Below, one piece after another: positions 1 through 8,137 of a stretch of DNA of 33,316 bases. The translations under genes were made by a program, and so were the position numbers. The DNA is from Geminicoccaceae bacterium (GTDB lineage Bacteria; Pseudomonadota; Alphaproteobacteria; Geminicoccales; Geminicoccaceae), in the NCBI GenBank assembly GCA_023512415.1, contig JAILZQ010000014.1:1-33316 (forward strand), given 5' to 3'. Within the stretch, counting starts at the first letter, position 1; every line of letters starts with the position of its first letter. The notes under the pieces are model-generated. The model saw only the letters and a list, made by a program, of their open reading frames with translations. It was not told the DNA's origin and did no database searches.

Positions 1-2
1 GC

Positions 3-356
3 TTCGTCCTGGTCCACGCGGGCATGCTCGAGGATGCGAGCGAGGCGGGCTTCGCGCGTTGGTGGGCGGCGCTCGCGCGGCTTTCGGCCGAGCCCAACCT
101 CGCCTGCAAGCTTTCGGGGCTGAACACCTTCGTGCGCCGGCTCGACCGTGAGCTCGTGGGCCGGATCTGTGCTGCCGCGCTCGAGGCGTTCGGGCCGAAG
201 CGCTGCCTGTTCGGTTCGAACTTCCCGATCGAGAAGCTCTGGTGCGGCTACGCCGACCTGCTCGAGGCCTATCGAGCCGGGATCGCGCATCTCTCGGAGC
301 CCGACCGCCGCGCCGTGCTCGGGGACAACGCTCGTCGCATCTACCGGCTGGATTGA
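3..356 (+). CDS. Amidohydrolase-2 family TIM-barrel hydrolase, C-terminal part only
   Basis: The reading frame enters from the left edge, so only the last 117 residues are present. The stretch GSNFPIEKLW matches the strand-8 motif of amidohydrolase-2 family proteins. In many members this reads GSDWP with a metal-binding Asp; here it is Asn, as in the subgroup with ASNFP or GSNFP. The ending DNARRIYRLD is the usual family terminus (N-A-x-R-x-Y). An earlier segment, NLACKLSGL, fits the strand before the last metal site. Family members hydrolyse lactones or decarboxylate aromatic and dicarboxylic acids; the substrate cannot be read from this fragment. The next gene starts 14 bases after its stop, so the two are probably cotranscribed, and the neighbours suggest a lactone or sugar-acid pathway. 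Confidence 0.85.
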   Translation, partial: FVLVHAGMLEDASEAGFARWWAALARLSAEPNLACKLSGLNTFVRRLDRELVGRICAAALEAFGPKRCLFGSNFPIEKLWCGYADLLEAYRAGIAHLSEPDRRAVLGDNARRIYRLD

Positions 357-1231: not shown

Positions 1232-2851
1232 GTGGCGCACGAGATCCTCCGGCCCGAGGCGCGCGAGCTGATCGACCCGGACGCGCCGGTCGAGCAGCTC
1301 GCCACGGGCTTCACCTTCACCGAGGGCCCGGTCTGGCACCCGGTCGAGCACCATCTCCTCTTCTCCGACATGCCGGCGGACGTGCGCCGGCGCTGGACGC
1401 CGGGGGTCGGGATCGAGGAGGTGATGCGGCCGTCGAACAAGGCGAACGGCCTCACCTACGACGCCCGGCTGAACCTCCTCGCTTGCGAGCACGCGACCTC
1501 CTCCGTCGTCCGCTTCACCGCGGACGGAAGGCGCGAGGTGCTCGCGAGCCATTTCGAGGGCAAGGAGCTCAACAGCCCGAACGATCTCTGCGTCCGCTCG
1601 GACGGCTCGATCTACTTCTCCGATCCGTGGTACGGGCGGATGCCGGTCTACGGGGTCGAGCGGCCGCGCGAGCTCGGCTTCCAAGGGGTCTACCGGATCC
1701 CGCCCCAGGGTGGGCCGCCGCAGCTTTTGGTCGAGCGCTACCTGTTCGACCAGCCGAACGGGCTCTGCTTCTCGCCCGACGAGAAGCTCCTTTATGTCAA
1801 CGACACCGTCCAGGCGCTGATCCGTGCTTTCGAGGTCAAGTCCGACGGCTCGCTCGGCGCGGGATGGATCCTCGCCTCGGGCATCCGCTCCGAACTCGAG
1901 CCCGGCGTGCCCGACGGGATGAAATGCGACGAGCGCGGCAACATCTGGTGCACGGGCCCGGGCGGGGTGTGGATCCTCGATCCCGCCGGGCGGCACCTCG
2001 CCACGGTCCGCGTGCCCGAGCTCGTCGCCAACCTCGCCTGGGGTGGCGAGGACTGGCGCACGCTCTTCTTGACCGCCTCGCGCTCGCTCTATGCGGTGCG
2101 CACCAAGGTCGGCCCGCGGATCGAGCCCTACATGCGGGCCGCGGCGCGTCCATCGAGCGCTGCCGCGACCGGGCGCAGCGGTGCCACGCGGCCGAGCGCC
2201 GGTGGGGCACGCGAGCCGGCCCGGGCGGTCGACCCGGTCGAGGGCTTCCGGCTCGATCCCGGCCGGTGCGCGCTTCTGATCCAGGACATGCAGAACGACG
2301 TCGTCATGGAGGGCGGCGCCTTCGCGGCGAGCGGCTCGCCACGGCACTGCAAGGAGCAGAACGCGATCGCCAACATCGCCCGGCTCGCCGCCCATTGCCG
2401 GCGGCTGGGCGTGCCGGTGATCCACATCTGGTTCGTGGTCGAGCCGGGGGCGCCCGGGGTCACGCTCAACTGCCCGCTCTTCGAGGGCCTCGTGGAATCG
2501 AAGGGGCTCGTGCGTGGGACCTGGGGAGTGGCGCCCGTGCCGGGGCTCGAGCCGCAGCCGGGCGATCTCGTGGTCGAGAAGATGCGGATGAGCGCCTGGG
2601 AGGGGACCAAGCTCGAGATCGTCTTGAAAGCCCTCGGCCGCGACATCCTGATCGACACCGGGGCGTGGACCAACATGTCGATCGAGCACACCGCCCGGAC
2701 CGGCGCCGACAAGGGCTACGTGATGATCGTGCCCGAGGATGCCTGCTCGACCATGAACGCCGACTGGCACCGCGCCTCGATCGACTACGCGATGCGCAAC
2801 GTCGCCGCGGTCACCACGACGGATGCGGTGATCCGGGCCCTCGGCGGCTGA
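1232..2851 (+). CDS. SMP-30/gluconolactonase domain fused to isochorismatase-family hydrolase domain
   Basis: A 539-residue two-domain protein starting at GTG 1232. Residues about 15-300 are an SMP-30/gluconolactonase/LRE beta-propeller: FTEGPVW carries the metal ligand Glu31, and NSPNDL (114-119), QPNGLCFSPD (174-183) and GVPDGMKCD (225-233, Asp228) give the other metal and active-site positions. An Ala/Ser/Arg-rich linker spans about 302-333. Residues about 338-539 are an isochorismatase-like cysteine hydrolase domain with QDMQND (Asp352) and the lysine of VVEKMRMSAW (Lys450). The nucleophile position, usually TNVCVESTAR, reads TNMSIEHTAR, so the Cys is Ser483. The second domain may therefore be non-hydrolytic or work by the Cys-independent isochorismatase chemistry. 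The fusion suggests lactone opening coupled to a second hydrolysis. No frameshift is visible at the junction. Confidence 0.9.
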   Translation: MAHEILRPEARELIDPDAPVEQLATGFTFTEGPVWHPVEHHLLFSDMPADVRRRWTPGVGIEEVMRPSNKANGLTYDARLNLLACEHATSSVVRFTADGRREVLASHFEGKELNSPNDLCVRSDGSIYFSDPWYGRMPVYGVERPRELGFQGVYRIPPQGGPPQLLVERYLFDQPNGLCFSPDEKLLYVNDTVQALIRAFEVKSDGSLGAGWILASGIRSELEPGVPDGMKCDERGNIWCTGPGGVWILDPAGRHLATVRVPELVANLAWGGEDWRTLFLTASRSLYAVRTKVGPRIEPYMRAAARPSSAAATGRSGATRPSAGGAREPARAVDPVEGFRLDPGRCALLIQDMQNDVVMEGGAFAASGSPRHCKEQNAIANIARLAAHCRRLGVPVIHIWFVVEPGAPGVTLNCPLFEGLVESKGLVRGTWGVAPVPGLEPQPGDLVVEKMRMSAWEGTKLEIVLKALGRDILIDTGAWTNMSIEHTARTGADKGYVMIVPEDACSTMNADWHRASIDYAMRNVAAVTTTDAVIRALGG

Positions 2852-2879: not shown

Positions 2880-3932
2880 TCAGGGCCGGGCCGTGGGCCG
2901 GGCCGGATCGAAGGGGCGCGGATCGAACTTCGGCGTGGCGCCCAGCAGCAGATCGGCCAAGAGCTCGCCCGAGGCCGGTCCCTCGAGGATGCCCCAGGGC
3001 CCGTGGCCGGTCGCGAGCCAGAGGCCCGGCCTGCCGGGCACGGGACCCAGAAGCGGCGTGCCGTCGGCGCTCACGGGCCTGAGGCAGGCGCGCGGCTCGA
3101 CCCGCCGGGCGTGGGAAAGCGCCGGCAGGACCGCCCGGGCAGCCGCCAGGAGCCGCTCCGCCGCGCCGGGATCGGGGCCGACCGCGGTCGGCTCAGCGGG
3201 CGGGCGGGCCGGGCGGGAAAGACCCGCGACCACGACGCTGCCGTCGGCTCTCGGGTAGATCTCGAGCTCGTCGAGCCCGTGGCGGACGGGGTCGAGCCGG
3301 GCGAACAGCACCCGCGGCGGCAGCGGCTCGGCGAGCTCGAAGCGCAGGCTGTGGCCGAGCAGCGCGAAGACGGGCGGCAGCTTCACCCGAATTCGGGCCA
3401 GGTTCGTCCAGGGGCCGAGGGCGAGCACGACCGCTTCCGCCCGGAGCGTCGTGCCCGCGAGGCGGAGGCGCCAGCCCCGCCCCTCGGGCTCGAGCCCCTC
3501 GGGCGTGCCGGTCAGGAGGCGCGCGCCGGCTCCGACCGCCCGCTCGACGAGCCAGCAGGTGAGCCGGGCCGGGTCGACGAGGGCGGTGGTCGTGGGCTCG
3601 CCGAGCCGCTCCACCAGGTGGAAGCCGGGTCCGAGCCAGGCCGCGGGCTCGCCCCCGCCGCTCGCGGTGACGAGCCAGGTCTCGACCGGGCGGTGGCCGA
3701 GCGCGTCGGCCGCGTCGCGGGCGAGCTCGCCGTGGAGGCCGAAGCTTCGTCGGGAAAGGGGGGCGCGCGGCAGGCCGTCGCACCAATCGAGGGCGAGGAA
3801 GCCGCCGGCCTTGCCCGAGGCGGCGCAGGCCGGGGCGGCGCGCTCGACGATCGCGACCGCGGCACCCCGGCGGGCGAGGAAGAAGGCGGTGGCCGCGCCG
3901 ATCACCCCCGCGCCCAGGACGAGGACCTTCAT
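2880..3932 (-). CDS. FAD-dependent oxidoreductase of the D-amino-acid oxidase/dehydrogenase family
   Basis: A 350-residue flavoprotein. The N-terminal dinucleotide fold is clear: VLGAGVIGAATAFFLARRG (residues 4-22) contains GxGxxG, followed by VAIVER with the ribose-binding acidic residue. The C-terminal motif TGHGPWGILEGPASGELLA is the second FAD-contact segment of the DAO superfamily (glycine oxidase, DadA, sarcosine oxidase type). A middle segment, EAVVLALGPWTN, is the usual GG-like flavin motif region. The ATG is preceded by AAGGGAA at good spacing. Expected to oxidise an amine or amino acid, with electrons to oxygen or a quinone; the substrate is not predictable. It converges on the lactonase-isochorismatase fusion (29-base gap) and diverges from the HpaI aldolase gene. 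At 350 residues it is a little shorter than DadA (about 420), closer to glycine oxidase. Confidence 0.88.
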   Translation of the reverse strand: MKVLVLGAGVIGAATAFFLARRGAAVAIVERAAPACAASGKAGGFLALDWCDGLPRAPLSRRSFGLHGELARDAADALGHRPVETWLVTASGGGEPAAWLGPGFHLVERLGEPTTTALVDPARLTCWLVERAVGAGARLLTGTPEGLEPEGRGWRLRLAGTTLRAEAVVLALGPWTNLARIRVKLPPVFALLGHSLRFELAEPLPPRVLFARLDPVRHGLDELEIYPRADGSVVVAGLSRPARPPAEPTAVGPDPGAAERLLAAARAVLPALSHARRVEPRACLRPVSADGTPLLGPVPGRPGLWLATGHGPWGILEGPASGELLADLLLGATPKFDPRPFDPARPTARP

Positions 3933-4123
3933 CCCGTGTTCCCTTGCCGGGCGGTGCGCCGCTACGACCTGGCCCCGCCCCTTCGCATCCTAACGAGCGG
4001 ACGGCCGCCGAGCGACCGGCGGACGGCTCGCGCGAGGGGTGCCGCCATGCGCGTCGGGCACTCGACAGGCGGCTGCAGCTGGTCGCAGCCTGCCCCCGAG
4101 GGACCGATCGGGGAGGGAGAGAA
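3933..4123. promoter_or_regulatory. Divergent intergenic region with an inverted repeat
   Basis: 191 bases between two divergently transcribed genes, so it should hold promoters for both. No convincing -35/-10 pair was found by eye. A perfect 6-base inverted repeat, GGCTGC and GCAGCC around 8 bases, lies at 4071-4090, 33 bases before the aldolase start. The 8-mer CGGACGGC occurs at about 3998 and 4019 as a direct repeat. Either could be a regulator site or a leader hairpin; this is inference only. Confidence 0.3.
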
Positions 4124-4900
4124 ATGGACGGGCGGCCTTGCGTGCGCGAGCGGATCCTGCGCGGCGAGCCGGTCTACGGGACGATGGTCTTCGAGCTGTT
4201 CACGCCCGGGCTGCCGGCGATCCTCGCGGCCGCGGGCTTCGACTTCGTGGTGCTCGACACCGAGCACAGCGGGGTCGGTATCGAGACCTTGAAGACGGTG
4301 ATCGCCTGTGCGCGCGGCCTGCCGATCGAGGTCTACGTGCGGGTGCCCGAGAAGTCCTACGCGGCCGTGGCGACCGTGCTGGATGCGGGGGCGCAGGGCA
4401 TCATGGTGCCGATGCTCGAGACGCCTGAGCAGGCCAGGGATCTCGTCGAGTGGGTGCGCTACCGGCCGGAGGGCAAGCGCGGCTGCGCCTTCGGCATGGC
4501 GCACGACGGCTACCGGGCGCGGGACGTGGTCGCCTACATGGCCGAGGCCAACCGCAAGAACCTCGTGATCGGCCTGATCGAGACCCGCAAGGGCATCGAA
4601 AACGCCGAGGCGATCTGCGCCACGCCCGGCTTCGACGTCGCCTGGCTCGGCCATTTCGACCTCACCAACGACATGGGGATCACCGCGCAATTCGAGCATC
4701 CCGAGTTCTGGGCGGCGGTCGACCGGCTCGTGGCGGCGGCCAGGAAGCACGGCACGGCACTCGGCGGGCTCGACGGCGACCTCGCCTATCTGGCGAAGCT
4801 CCGGGCCAAAGGCTTCAAGGTCTTGGGCTACGGGATGGACATCGCGGTCCTGCGCAACGCCTGGGCGCAGGGGCTCGCCGGCCTCAAGGCGCTGGGCTGA
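4124..4900 (+). CDS. HpcH/HpaI family class II aldolase/citrate-lyase-like protein
   Basis: 258 residues, starting at ATG 4124 after a clear GGGAGG. The open frame extends upstream, but that part is Arg/Pro-rich and not family-like. The fold is the phosphoenolpyruvate/pyruvate TIM barrel. VVLDTEHSGVG holds the catalytic His, VYVRVPE the pyruvate-carboxylate Arg segment, QGIMVPMLETPEQA the central strand, and GLIETRKGIEN the metal-binding Glu. Members such as HpaI, GarL and RhmA split 2-keto-3-deoxy acids or 4-hydroxy-2-oxo acids to pyruvate plus an aldehyde, using a divalent metal. With lactonase-like genes just upstream, a sugar-acid or aromatic-acid pathway is plausible. This is the last metabolic gene before the Cmr operon (106-base gap). 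Confidence 0.9.
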   Translation: MDGRPCVRERILRGEPVYGTMVFELFTPGLPAILAAAGFDFVVLDTEHSGVGIETLKTVIACARGLPIEVYVRVPEKSYAAVATVLDAGAQGIMVPMLETPEQARDLVEWVRYRPEGKRGCAFGMAHDGYRARDVVAYMAEANRKNLVIGLIETRKGIENAEAICATPGFDVAWLGHFDLTNDMGITAQFEHPEFWAAVDRLVAAARKHGTALGGLDGDLAYLAKLRAKGFKVLGYGMDIAVLRNAWAQGLAGLKALG

Positions 4901-5006: not shown

Positions 5007-6392
5007 ATGTCGCTCTCCGTGGTGAAACCGCCCGAGGCGTTGCCGGAACCGCGCCGGCGCGCGGTCCGCGGCGGGCCGGTGCTCGAGACGGTCCGGCTCG
5101 ACCTCGAGCTCGTGACCCCCGTGCTCGGTGGGGCCGCGGTGCCGCGGACGATCGACGCGGTCGACATCGTCCGGGTTCCCTCGATCCGCGGTCAGCTCCG
5201 CTTCTGGTGGCGGGCGCTCAACGTCCAACGGTATGTGAGCGCGAAAAAGCTCTACGAGGCTGAGAGCGCGCTGTTCGGCCGGGCGGCGGACGAGGGCGGC
5301 GGCCGATCGCCGGTCGAGCTGCGGGTCGTGAGCGTCGCGCCGGGCCAAAAAGACGAGTCCGAAGTTCGGCTGACGAGCGGCAAACGTGGCCCCGCAACGC
5401 CCGGAGCCTATGCGCTCTTTCCTGCGCGAGCCGAGGCCGGCGGTACCCCCACGGCACCGCGTCGGAAGCCGGGGACGGGGTTCACGCTCGAGCTGCGCGC
5501 GCCGAAGGAGCGGCTCGAGGAGCTGCGCCACGTGCTGCGGGCGTGGATCCTGTTCGGCGGCTACGGCAGCCGGACGCGGCGGGGGCTCGGCGGCCTCGCT
5601 CTCGTGCGCGATCGCGAGCTTTGGCTGCCGAGGGAGGCGAGCCTCGCCGAGTTCGGGAGGCTCTTCGGCCGCGACGTCTTCGCGCCGCAGGCCGTTCCGG
5701 CCGAGCTCGCCCAGACCCCGCGGCTCGCGGGCGCCTCGTTGCTCGTGGGCAAAGCTTTGAGCCCTGCGGACTTGGACTTCAAAGATCGGGTGATGACAGA
5801 GGCCGAGCGCGCCTGGCTCACGGCGCTGCATTGGCTGCGCGACTTCCGGCAGGAGACGGACACCGGGGCACGCGAGCCGGGGGCCGGAAACCGACCTTCG
5901 ATCTCGAACTGGCCCGAAGCGGACAAGATCCGCCACCTCACCGGCAAGACACGAAGTCACGAGCCGCGCTACGGGCCCGATCCGGCTTGGCCGCGGGCCG
6001 CTTTCGGCCTCCCGATCGTCGGGCAGTTCCAGAAAAAGGCGCGAGACGGTGGCACCTACGACGAGCCCGACCCGTTCGAGCTCACCTGGAAGGATCGGGA
6101 AGGCCTGCACAACCGCCTCGCGAGCCCGTTGATCGTCAAGGCGATGCCGCTCGCCGACGGGCAGTTCGTGCCGATCGCGCTCTGGCTCGCGCGCGACTGG
6201 CCGCCGCATGGTCGAGTCGTCCTGCGGAAGAACAAGACGGAGGACGTGCCCAAGTCGGCGGCACCGTTCGACAAGCTCCTCAGCGAGAAGGATCCGGTCC
6301 TTTTCCCGCCGCTCCGCGGCAAGACGAGCCTGCGCGCGGCGTTCCTCGACTGGCTCGCGAGCGAGAAGAAAGCGACGAGGATCGCCGGATGA
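5007..6392 (+). CDS. cmr1: Type III-B CRISPR RAMP protein Cmr1 (Cas7-like)
   Basis: 461 residues. Cmr1 caps the 3' crRNA end of the Cmr effector filament and contacts target RNA entry. The family motif is plain: LVTPVLGGA (36-44) followed by SIRGQLRFWWRAL (59-71), matching the TPxxGG and IRGxLRFWWRA block of Cmr1. A glycine-rich RAMP loop, GGYGSRTRRGLGGL, is at 184-197. A C-terminal half of about 230 residues, including PLIVKAMPLADG, corresponds to the second ferredoxin-like repeat. Length is normal for Cmr1. The start ATG has an ideal AGGGAGG. It is the first gene of the operon, and its stop overlaps the cmr2 start (ATGA). Two inserts, about 96-155 and 285-345, are charged and may be loops. 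Confidence 0.93.
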   Translation: MSLSVVKPPEALPEPRRRAVRGGPVLETVRLDLELVTPVLGGAAVPRTIDAVDIVRVPSIRGQLRFWWRALNVQRYVSAKKLYEAESALFGRAADEGGGRSPVELRVVSVAPGQKDESEVRLTSGKRGPATPGAYALFPARAEAGGTPTAPRRKPGTGFTLELRAPKERLEELRHVLRAWILFGGYGSRTRRGLGGLALVRDRELWLPREASLAEFGRLFGRDVFAPQAVPAELAQTPRLAGASLLVGKALSPADLDFKDRVMTEAERAWLTALHWLRDFRQETDTGAREPGAGNRPSISNWPEADKIRHLTGKTRSHEPRYGPDPAWPRAAFGLPIVGQFQKKARDGGTYDEPDPFELTWKDREGLHNRLASPLIVKAMPLADGQFVPIALWLARDWPPHGRVVLRKNKTEDVPKSAAPFDKLLSEKDPVLFPPLRGKTSLRAAFLDWLASEKKATRIAG

Positions 6393-8137
6393 GCGGGCAC
6401 CTGCTGCTTCTCACGATCGGTCCGGTCCAGGAGTTCATCGCCCAGGCCCGGCGCACCCGCGACCTCTGGTACGGCAGCCACCTGCTCTCCGAGCTCGCGC
6501 GTGCCGCGGCCCGCGCGCTCGTGCAGGAAGGCGCCGAACTCGTCCTGCCCGCGCTCGGAGCTCACGATCCCGAGCTCGAGCCCTGCCCCGGTTTCTTGCG
6601 CGAGAACCGGACGCCGCCTGCCTCCATCGCCAACAAGCTCCTGGCGATCGTCCCGCAGGGACGCAACCCGGCCGCGACCGCCAGAGCGGTGCGCGCGGCC
6701 GTGCTGGCGTTCTGGCGCGACGAGCTCGCGGCACCCGTCAAAGAGAAGTGCCGGGCCTTGCTCGCACACGATGTGGACGAGATCTGGGACGAGCAGATCG
6801 AAAGCTTCGTCGAGTTCTACGCGAGCTGGGCGCCCCTCGACGGCGACTACGCGGAGGCGCGCCGGAAGCTCGAACGGACCGTCGCCGGGCGCAAGATGCT
6901 GCGCGAGTTCGCGCCCTGGAAGCACGATCGCGCGGGCGCGCCGAAATCGAGCCTCGACGGCGCCCGGGTCTCGGTCCTCGCCGAGGTGCGATCGAAGGAC
7001 CTCGTCAAGAAGTACCGTTTGAACCCGGGCGAGCAGCTCGACGCGGTGGGGCTCGTCAAACGCGCGGGCGGGGAGCCCGACCAGTTCGTGCCGCTCGTGA
7101 ACGTGGCGCTCGCCGGGTGGATCGTCGAAGCGGAGCAGCTCGCAGGGGACGAGCTCGCGCGATTGCGCGAGCGGGCCCGCGAGCTCGACCTCTCGCGGGT
7201 GAACCGCGGCGATCTCGCGTGGACGAAGGCCTTCCCGTTCGATGCGAGCGCGCTGATCGAAAGCCGTGTGGCACCGACCTTCGAGGAGCTCGGGATCGCG
7301 GGCGATCCGCAAGCTTTCGTCCGCCGCGAGCTGCGCCCACTCTACCGCAAGATCGCGGAGCCTTCGCCTTACGTCGCCTGCCTCGTGGCCGACGGCGACA
7401 AGATGGGCGAGCGGCTGGACCAGCTCCGAGATCCCGACGCCCACCGAGACTTTTCATCGAAACTCGCGGGCTTCGCGGCCAAAGTACGGAAAATGGTCGA
7501 GCTGGAGCACCGGGGCTCGCTCGTCTACGCTGGTGGCGACGACGTCTTGGCGTTCTTGCCGGTGGTCGATGCCGTGTCCTGTGCCGACCGGCTACGCCGC
7601 AGCTTCGAGGATGTCGTAGGCGGCACGCTCTCGGTCGGGATCGGCATCGGCCACGTGATGGAGGGGATGGGCGATCTCTTGGAGCTCGGCCGCCGAGCCG
7701 AACGGCTCGCCAAGACCCTGCGGAAGGCGCTCGGCGTGATCCTCGACAAGCGCTCGGGCGAGAGGCGGGAGTGGAAGGCGTCCTGGTGCATCGACCCGGC
7801 GAACCGGTTGCGCGAGGACGCGAAGCTCGTCGACGAGAAGCTTTCGACCAAGAAGATCCACGAGATCGCCGCGGTGCTGCGCCGCCTGCCCGAGCCCGGG
7901 ACGGTCGAGGGCGACGGGGTGGCGTGGCAAAGGGTGCTCGAGGGCGAGGTGCGCCGCGCGCTCGCCCGCAACGAGCCCGAGGCCCTCACGGCCGAAGAGG
8001 TCGGGCTCGAGCTGCCCGCGAGCTACGCGCAGGCTCACGAGGCGGTCGGGCGTTGGGTCGATCGGCTGTTGATCGCCCGGGCGATCGCCGAGGCGCAGCC
8101 GCGGCCGCGGCGGCCGAGCGTGGCGGAGGCGGCATGA
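6389..8137 (+). CDS. cmr2: Type III-B Cas10 subunit Cmr2, HD-less, with intact GGDD
   Basis: 582 residues, starting at the ATGA overlap with cmr1. The protein opens directly with LLLLTIGPVQEFIAQARRTR (residues 5-24) and LWYGSHLLSELARAA, the standard start of the first Cmr2 palm-like domain, so the HD nuclease domain found ahead of it in many Cas10 proteins is absent. The first palm-type motif, LVADGDKMGERLD, has Asp335 and Asp337. The cyclase motif GGDDVLAFLP has GGDD at 382-385. A helical C-terminal domain (about 460-582) follows. Only five scattered cysteines are seen and no CxxC pairs, so the zinc knuckle of archaeal Cmr2 appears missing. Known role: large subunit, and ATP-dependent cyclic oligoadenylate synthesis on target RNA binding. 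Predicted here: signalling without DNA cleavage. Confidence 0.95.
   Translation: MSGHLLLLTIGPVQEFIAQARRTRDLWYGSHLLSELARAAARALVQEGAELVLPALGAHDPELEPCPGFLRENRTPPASIANKLLAIVPQGRNPAATARAVRAAVLAFWRDELAAPVKEKCRALLAHDVDEIWDEQIESFVEFYASWAPLDGDYAEARRKLERTVAGRKMLREFAPWKHDRAGAPKSSLDGARVSVLAEVRSKDLVKKYRLNPGEQLDAVGLVKRAGGEPDQFVPLVNVALAGWIVEAEQLAGDELARLRERARELDLSRVNRGDLAWTKAFPFDASALIESRVAPTFEELGIAGDPQAFVRRELRPLYRKIAEPSPYVACLVADGDKMGERLDQLRDPDAHRDFSSKLAGFAAKVRKMVELEHRGSLVYAGGDDVLAFLPVVDAVSCADRLRRSFEDVVGGTLSVGIGIGHVMEGMGDLLELGRRAERLAKTLRKALGVILDKRSGERREWKASWCIDPANRLREDAKLVDEKLSTKKIHEIAAVLRRLPEPGTVEGDGVAWQRVLEGEVRRALARNEPEALTAEEVGLELPASYAQAHEAVGRWVDRLLIARAIAEAQPRPRRPSVAEAA

What the first reader, a model, noticed from the sequence alone, without database searches (positions are those of the whole stretch)
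1232..2851. Lactonase-isochorismatase fusion with Ser in place of Cys
A beta-propeller SMP-30 domain and an isochorismatase-fold domain are fused by a low-complexity linker. The usual nucleophile in TNVCVE is Ser (TNMSIE, residue 483), while Asp352 and Lys450 stay. The second half may be a pseudo-enzyme, a Cys-independent hydrolase, or bind a metabolite made by the first half.
Basis: partly seen in the sequence, partly recalled or inferred. Interest (0 to 1): 0.55.

Follow-up and report, generated by a model that had tools for sequence, protein, structure and literature searches.

The report
Lactonase fused to Cys-less isochorismatase domain
This is a real two-domain protein, conserved in many alphaproteobacteria, in which a ring-opening lactonase is joined to an isochorismatase-type domain that lacks the usual cysteine but keeps its two other active-site residues, and it sits in an operon that looks made for breaking down an unknown compound.

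Summary
ORF 1232-2851 (539 aa) joins an SMP-30 lactonase domain with its presumed metal ligands to an isochorismatase domain with Ser483 where cysteine hydrolases have Cys. It is no artefact: all 80 related loci kept by the scan carry the fusion. Position 483 is Ser in 80 of 81 sequences, Ala in one, never Cys; Asp352 and Lys450 are invariant. In another order the two parts are adjacent separate genes (16 of 16 examined pairs, 6-13 nt apart), all with Ser, so Cys was missing before or independently of the fusion. Four nearer paralogues have Ala (3) or Ser (1). Both domains are under purifying selection. The fusion closes a conserved block: xanthine-dehydrogenase-type molybdenum hydroxylase, CoxD/CoxE-like proteins, Amidohydro_2 and MBL lactonase-like enzymes. 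Best reading: a tandem catabolic hydrolase whose second domain works without a covalent Cys or Ser, by Asp-Lys acid-base chemistry as in true isochorismatases, on the lactonase product or a related intermediate. Activity and substrate are not shown; a pseudo-enzyme remains possible, a Ser nucleophile unlikely. The paper searches made found no description of it.

The parts
1..356 (+). C-terminal part of an Amidohydro_2 (L-fuconolactonase-like, below the equivalog cut-off) gene, cut by the contig edge
   Evidence: Pfam PF04909 E 6.1e-23; orthologue in 78 of 80 related loci; the 5' part lies on contig C49 of the same genome, whose end overlaps the window start by 130 bases at 98% identity
371..1219 (+). 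metallo-beta-lactamase-fold lactonase-like gene (AiiA / 4-pyridoxolactonase-like), upstream neighbour; start chosen by comparison with relatives (the mechanical ORF begins at 242)
   Evidence: Pfam PF00753 E 9.9e-13; NCBIfam AiiA 52 bits against a cut-off of 375; orthologue in 80 of 80 related loci
1232..2851 (+). SMP-30 lactonase / Cys-less isochorismatase fusion, 539 aa
   Evidence: one frame in 80 of 80 related loci
1316..2080 (+). SMP-30 / gluconolactonase beta-propeller domain (residues 29-283); presumed metal ligands Glu31, Asn176, Asp228
   Evidence: the three residues 81 of 81; Foldseek best match 3e5z, E 1.6e-25. Metal-ligand roles recalled from human SMP30, mapped by the alignments
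2135..2251 (+). low-complexity linker (residues about 302-340)
   Evidence: 20-52 aa between fixed columns and variable among 81 members; dN/dS 0.41 against 0.10 and 0.08 in the domains; pLDDT under 50 at 306-337
2267..2824 (+). isochorismatase-fold domain (residues 346-531)
   Evidence: VIA-align Z 27.6 to 3kl2 (rmsd 1.9, 190 aligned), 24.3-24.6 to RutB, 23.3 to VibB, 22.5 to PhzD
2285..2287 (+). Asp352, catalytic Asp position
   Evidence: 81 of 81
2579..2581 (+). Lys450, catalytic Lys position
   Evidence: 81 of 81
2678..2680 (+). Ser483 (TCG) at the position of the cysteine nucleophile of RutB-type enzymes
   Evidence: 80 Ser, 1 Ala of 81; aligned with the RutB Cys

Best explanation
A bifunctional catabolic hydrolase. 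Shown: an SMP-30 lactonase fold with its presumed metal ligands is joined by a variable linker to an isochorismatase-fold domain that keeps Asp352 and Lys450 but has a small non-thiol residue (Ser, rarely Ala) instead of Cys; the same pair exists as adjacent genes; the fusion follows a molybdenum hydroxylase and two more lactonase-like hydrolases in a conserved block. Inferred: the molybdenum hydroxylase oxidises a ring compound, the lactonase-type enzymes open lactone or enol-lactone rings, and the isochorismatase domain then cleaves a bond in the SMP-30 product or a related intermediate by Asp/Lys acid-base catalysis, as EntB, VibB and PhzD do with vinyl ethers, without a covalent acyl-enzyme. 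Ser483 would be a small pocket or oxyanion-loop residue rather than the nucleophile. The fusion keeps two consecutive enzymes together.
For: Continuous fusion in 80 of 80 kept loci. Asp352 81/81, Lys450 81/81, position 483 Ser 80/81 and Ala 1/81. Separate adjacent genes in another order: 16 of 16 with Ser, Asp and Lys, spacing 6-13 nt, 8 of 16 in the same frame. Fused and unfused rows each form one group in the tree (98/98 and 97/99); near-paralogues have Ala (3) or Ser (1); in these 46 rows Asp and Lys are always kept and Cys is never present. Median dN/dS 0.10 (SMP-30), 0.076 (isochorismatase), 0.41 (linker) over pairs of 23 Bradyrhizobium sequences. BiuH Cys175Ser is inactive as an amidase (PMC5806882, passages seen), which argues against Ser simply replacing Cys. 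EntB, PhzD and VibB hydrolyse vinyl ethers with a conserved Asp and Lys (PMC12210187, passages seen; that Gly156 there sits at the Cys position is recalled). Block: MBL 80, Amidohydro_2 78, CoxE 77, CoxD 70, Mo-subunit C part 70, N part 67 of 80 loci, contig ends counted as misses. Precedent for Mo-dehydrogenase then lactonase: deoxyribose pathway (PMC6365646, passages seen).
Against: No activity, substrate or ligand is known. The closest solved relatives by sequence and fold are not the true isochorismatases but 3kl2 (uncharacterised; Cys in the aligned sequence) and the Cys amidases RutB and BiuH, so descent from a Cys amidase with loss of function is possible. Asp and Lys are also kept in the distant Cys, Gly and Val rows of the tree (Asp 57 of 58 rows, Lys 58 of 58), so their conservation is not special to this clade, and the group that joins fused, unfused and near-paralogous rows has weak support (92/50) under a midpoint root. 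The residue is Ser or Ala, not Gly. The single Ala in a fused protein (L008; L140 is by its coordinates the same record) comes from a metagenome assembly and could be one wrong base. The Ala paralogues are about 45% identical and may do something else.
Confidence: 0.55

Rival explanations
1. Pseudo-enzyme: the second domain descends from a Cys amidase, lost its nucleophile, and now serves as a ligand-binding, oligomerising or allosteric module for the lactonase.
For: The nearest characterised solved homologues are Cys enzymes; the Cys-to-Ser form of BiuH is inactive yet binds biuret (PMC5806882 passages), and the RutB entry 8bll shows the same Cys-to-Ser change in its sequence.
Against: Asp352 and Lys450 invariant in 81 of 81 and in 46 of 46 rows with unfused and near-paralogous members; the domain is at least as constrained as the lactonase (dN/dS 0.076 against 0.10). 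Binding alone could still hold these residues.
Confidence: 0.27
2. Serine hydrolase: Ser483 has become a nucleophile activated by Asp352 and Lys450, giving an amidase or esterase with Ser chemistry.
For: Ser is conserved in 80 of 81 fused and 16 of 16 unfused members.
Against: Ala in one fused lineage and in three of four near-paralogues; Cys-to-Ser abolishes activity in BiuH (PMC5806882 passages). Both points are indirect.
Confidence: 0.13
3. Annotation or assembly artefact: two genes read together, or a misread Cys codon.
For: The window comes from an assembly in 263 contigs.
Against: The same continuous fusion in 80 other records, complete genomes among them, with Ser in 79 and Ala in 1; Ser codons TCG 75, TCC 4, Ala GCG 1 of 80 loci.
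Confidence: 0.02

Closest known systems
RutB, ureidoacrylate amidohydrolase, and BiuH, biuret hydrolase (Cys amidases of the isochorismatase-like fold)
   Same: Fold (VIA-align Z about 24) and the Asp and Lys positions; RutB is the second-nearest solved sequence after 3kl2 (E 5.6e-24 for 8bll).
   Different: Ser or Ala instead of the catalytic Cys; 63 bits against the RutB cut-off of 378 and 60 against the BiuH cut-off of 370; fused to a lactonase.
EntB / PhzD / VibB true isochorismatases (vinyl-ether hydrolases)
   Same: Same fold (Z about 22-23); conserved Asp and Lys (PMC12210187 passages).
   Different: They have Gly at the Cys position (recalled); 24-27% identity over the aligned residues; siderophore or phenazine synthesis; their substrate contacts Gln79 and Arg88 were not tested here.
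Bacterial gluconolactonases of the SMP-30 family (3e5z, 3dr2 XC5397, RPA3624)
   Same: Propeller fold and presumed metal ligands; 34% identity to 3e5z.
   Different: Those chains are single-domain lactonases; the substrate here is unknown.
Deinococcus radiodurans Cu/Zn-SOD fused to a beta-propeller lactonase (PMC12362111; listing and start of abstract seen)
   Same: A beta-propeller lactonase domain naturally fused to another enzyme.
   Different: Unrelated partner domain.
HqiA, an isochorismatase-like AHL lactonase (PMC5430456; passages seen)
   Same: Isochorismatase fold linked to lactone chemistry.
   Different: Keeps the Asp-Lys-Cys triad; a 237-aa stand-alone protein.

Membership tests
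Isochorismatase-like superfamily (PF00857) | profile match over gathering score | tested here: met
   150 bits against 27
Isochorismatase-like superfamily (PF00857) | fold | tested here: met
   AlphaFold2 model pLDDT 82, Z 27.6 to 3kl2
Cysteine hydrolases of this fold (RutB, BiuH type) | Asp-Lys-Cys triad | tested here: not met
   Asp and Lys 81 of 81, Cys 0 of 81
Cysteine hydrolases of this fold (RutB, BiuH type) | NCBIfam equivalog cut-off | tested here: not met
   RutB 63 of 378, BiuH 60 of 370, PRK11440 72 of 195 bits
True isochorismatases (EntB/PhzD/VibB) | Asp and Lys present, no Cys | tested here: met
   Asp and Lys of the family from PMC12210187 passages, absence of Cys there recalled
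True isochorismatases (EntB/PhzD/VibB) | Gly at the Cys position (recalled as a family feature) | tested here: not met
   Ser or Ala
True isochorismatases (EntB/PhzD/VibB) | Gln79 and Arg88 substrate contacts | not tested
   no residue-level structural alignment was made
SMP-30 / gluconolactonase family (PF08450) | profile match and presumed metal ligands | tested here: met
   164 bits against 26.3; Glu31, Asn176, Asp228 81 of 81; ligand roles recalled
SMP-30 / gluconolactonase family (PF08450) | lactonase activity | not testable with these tools
   needs protein

The most novel reading that the evidence does not exclude
A new tandem enzyme of an undescribed alphaproteobacterial catabolic pathway: the SMP-30 half opens a lactone formed after oxidation by a four-part molybdenum hydroxylase, and the isochorismatase half performs a Cys-independent bond cleavage (enol ether, enol-lactone or similar) on the product, a chemistry that arose inside the Cys-amidase branch of the fold independently of EntB and PhzD.
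Probability: 0.35. Interest if true: 0.65.

Novelty: new variant of a known kind. Interest (0 to 1): 0.46.

Why it matters
It marks a group within the isochorismatase-like fold in which the textbook nucleophile is absent while the Asp-Lys pair stays, and it gives the gene context (molybdenum hydroxylase, three lactonase-type hydrolases) needed to find the substrate. Annotation as a cysteine hydrolase would be wrong about the chemistry. If the second domain is active, it shows how a Cys amidase scaffold becomes a non-covalent hydrolase; if not, it is a clean, conserved pseudo-enzyme fused to its partner.

Tried and rejected
Artefact or frameshift: rejected. Private Cys-to-Ser mutation: rejected. 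Rut-like pyrimidine pathway: considered because the unfused clusters hold RidA- and alpha/beta-hydrolase genes as the rut operon does; rejected as an identity because all scores lie far below the Rut equivalog cut-offs (RutC 56 of 169, RutD 61 of 238, RutB 91 of 378) and the best hydrolase match is PcaD; hits to that RidA, hydrolase or decarboxylase at E 1e-20 are found in 0 of 83 fused stretches (80 loci of mostly 6 kb either side plus three longer stretches of genomes already among the 80), while the SDR query, a large family, hits 7 of 83. CO dehydrogenase: rejected, since the Mo subunit shows an RGFG loop of xanthine-dehydrogenase type in the 65 of 83 stretches where the pattern was found (several stretches begin behind it); the loop types are recalled. 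The substrate could not be narrowed: paper searches (listings; passages only of the papers named) gave no paper on this fusion; subscription journals are mostly not held. The first structure model (full fusion) had pTM 0.63, so no domain interface is claimed. Model coordinates are not among the files of the Python box, so active-site distances were not measured. A first pattern for the Mo loop was wrong and found nothing; it was corrected. Counting how often the Mo subunit is split was inconclusive: 13 of 83 stretches countable, 12 separate, 1 a spurious motif. L003 gave no usable hit and was left out of the tree; L002 and L148 there are the same gene. In one search the motif was not printed for L097, L115, L127, L129 and L143 because the pattern caught another stretch; L127 and L129 were read, the other three fused rows were not read at position 483.

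Not counted as separate witnesses: L004, G002 and G134 are one genome; L023 and G003 likewise; L008 and G655 by their coordinates. Counts of 80 loci contain many Bradyrhizobium.

Full report
What is there. The window is a whole contig, C24 (33316 bases), of a genome of 3.58 Mb in 263 contigs; its nearest named relatives are Geminicoccaceae assemblies, the closest 92% identical in this protein and of the same genus. ORF 1232-2851 on the + strand gives 539 residues from a GTG start. Residues 29-283 match SMP-30/gluconolactonase and 346-531 match isochorismatase in Pfam, with no other family. Between them lies a variable linker rich in Ala, Ser, Arg and Gly.

Is the fusion real? A scan of genome contigs found 345 stretches encoding a relative; the best 80 were kept. 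In all 80 a single open frame covers both domains (L053 is cut at residue 525 by its own end). They include Geminicoccaceae, Elioraea, Bradyrhizobium (most of them), Bosea, Microvirga, Methylobacterium, Pseudorhodoplanes and Aquamicrobium; window and loci fall into 20 clusters at under 86% identity. The linker is 20-52 residues between fixed columns. The fusion is not common: in a sample of 240 genomes of the class, 4 (own genome and one of its genus included) hold the fusion and 2 hold the two parts as neighbours; with the isochorismatase profile 11 of 398 genomes of the phylum match at E 1e-45.

Is the Ser real? In the alignment of window plus 80 loci, position 483 is Ser in 80 and Ala in 1 (L008), never Cys; the codons in the 80 loci are TCG 75, TCC 4, GCG 1. 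Asp352 and Lys450 are 81 of 81; so are Trp479, Asn481, Met482, Glu485 and His486. The SMP-30 residues Glu31, Asn176 and Asp228 are 81 of 81 and Asn114 at least 80 of 81; that the first three correspond to metal ligands of human SMP30 is recalled, with positions mapped through the alignments to 3e5z and 3dr2.

Outside the fusion. In the order to which genome G084 belongs, 16 of 22 genomes have a close isochorismatase homologue. In all 16 it is a separate gene lying 6-13 nt behind a separate SMP-30 gene, in 8 of 16 in the same frame. All 16 have Ser at the nucleophile position. Four further paralogues in that order, about 45% identical, have Ala (3) or Ser (1) and no SMP-30 match in the stretch fetched around them. 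A tree of 58 isochorismatase domains puts the 26 fused rows in one group (98/98) and the 16 unfused rows in one group (97/99). The group joining these with the four near-paralogues has only 92/50, the root is at the midpoint, and long branches meet among the distant rows. In those 46 rows Asp and Lys are always kept and Cys is never present. In the distant rows the position is Cys (5), Gly (5, one gene counted twice) or Val (2); Asp is kept in all but one of these and Lys in all, so the pair is not special to the Cys-less rows. The non-Cys state is thus shared with unfused relatives and is not a late decay after the fusion.

Selection. Over 253 pairs of 23 Bradyrhizobium sequences the median dN/dS (Nei-Gojobori, my script) is 0.10 for the SMP-30 domain and 0.076 for the isochorismatase domain; for the linker 0.41 over the 213 pairs not saturated. 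Strictly invariant columns among the 81 sequences: 102 of 301, 74 of 199, and 0 of 39 in the linker. The second domain is at least as constrained as the first.

Structure. AlphaFold2 on the fusion (21 sequences) gives pLDDT 76 and pTM 0.63, with the linker and parts of the second domain poor; best Foldseek match 3e5z, then XC5397 and RPA3624. The isochorismatase domain alone (49 sequences) gives pLDDT 82, model residues 71-90 poor, and matches 3kl2 (Z 27.6), then YecD, RutB, maleamate amidase, BiuH, VibB and PhzD at Z 22-25. By sequence the nearest are 3kl2 and RutB. Ser483 aligns with the RutB Cys; the RutB entry 8bll reads Ser there, presumably an engineered form.

Context. Upstream of the fusion the order is conserved: MBL lactonase-like 80, Amidohydro_2 78, CoxE-like VWA 77, CoxD-like AAA 70, C-terminal Mo part 70 and N-terminal Mo part 67 of 80 loci, contig ends counted as misses. 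For Amidohydro_2 the misses are L042, with sequence present, and L006, cut by its contig end. Behind the fusion a Flavodoxin_2-type gene follows in 55 of 80 loci; other downstream genes vary. Longer stretches from three genomes (Bradyrhizobium BTAi1, KatS3mg117, Elioraea thermophila) add FeS and FAD subunits, two SRPBCC (CoxG-like) proteins, a flotillin-like protein and a Tm-1/PEP-hydrolase-like protein in the same order; in Elioraea ABC-transporter and UPF0261 genes lie further up. The Mo subunit carries NRTPxxAMRGFG, a loop of xanthine-dehydrogenase type (type recalled). The window begins inside the Amidohydro_2 gene; CoxD and CoxE of the same genome lie on contig C49, whose end overlaps the window start by 130 bases at 98% identity, so the operon continues there. 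In 6 of 11 unfused loci looked at, the order is Amidohydro_2, RidA, SMP-30, isochorismatase, with a PcaD-like hydrolase behind; an SDR gene lies near in all 6, an acetoacetate-decarboxylase-like gene in 4 (the other two stretches end at the SDR gene) and a PotD-type transporter gene in 2; in the other 5 none of the Amidohydro_2, RidA or hydrolase genes is found. The trio Amidohydro_2, SMP-30 and isochorismatase is thus shared by two quite different clusters.

Mechanism. In cysteine hydrolases of this fold Asp and Lys activate a Cys; in BiuH, Cys175Ser abolishes activity (PMC5806882, passages seen). True isochorismatases use a conserved Asp, with Lys and water near the substrate, on a vinyl ether (PMC12210187, passages seen); that they have Gly at the Cys place is recalled. 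The domain here keeps Asp and Lys, has Ser or Ala, and is strongly constrained. I therefore favour a non-covalent Asp-Lys acid-base hydrolase acting on a product or neighbour intermediate of the lactonase (0.55), with a pseudo-enzyme (0.27) and a Ser nucleophile (0.13) as rivals. A molybdenum dehydrogenase feeding a lactonase is proposed for deoxyribose catabolism (PMC6365646, passages seen; in vitro the lactonase was not needed there, and the word isochorismatase does not occur), which makes oxidation followed by lactone opening plausible. The substrate is not determined.

Known or new. The domains are known families; the fusion with a Cys-less isochorismatase domain, its unfused counterpart and the operon were not found in the papers searched. 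I file it as a new variant of known kinds: member of PF00857 and PF08450, not a cysteine hydrolase (Cys tested and absent), not shown to be a true isochorismatase.

Noticed in passing
window 5007-8137: Type III-B CRISPR genes (Cmr1 RAMP, Cas10/Cmr2) start about 2.2 kb downstream of the fusion.
   Followed up: no
window 2880-3932 (-) and 3944-4900 (+): A DAO-family oxidoreductase and an HpcH/HpaI aldolase follow the fusion; matches near it in only 3 and 4 of 80 relatives, all close kin, so a local addition.
   Followed up: partly
L092 10945-13540, L094 9271-12000: The molybdopterin-binding subunit of the hydroxylase is encoded in two consecutive genes (hammerhead plus MoCoBD_1, then MoCoBD_2), the first ending in a low-complexity tail closing with RRR; a four-part molybdenum hydroxylase.
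   Followed up: partly
L092 15324-19590, L093 3440-8500, L094 659-7983: Flotillin-like, two CoxG-like SRPBCC and Tm-1/PEP-hydrolase-like genes travel with the molybdenum hydroxylase in the three genomes read; their role is unknown.
   Followed up: partly
L148 (own genome, contig C221): A second Cys-less isochorismatase-fold protein in the same genome, with Gly (TNGGVAST) at the nucleophile place and Asp and Lys kept.
   Followed up: partly
L163, L164: Divergent isochorismatase-fold proteins with Val at the nucleophile place and Asp and Lys kept.
   Followed up: no
L152-L156, L161: A catabolic cluster Amidohydro_2, RidA, SMP-30, isochorismatase (Ser) with SDR and PcaD-like genes in 6 of 6, acetoacetate-decarboxylase-like in 4 and PotD-type transporter gene in 2; an undescribed pathway candidate.
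   Followed up: partly
L053: The operon on a contig filed under Terriglobia (Acidobacteriota) branches among alphaproteobacterial sequences; misbinning or recent transfer.
   Followed up: no
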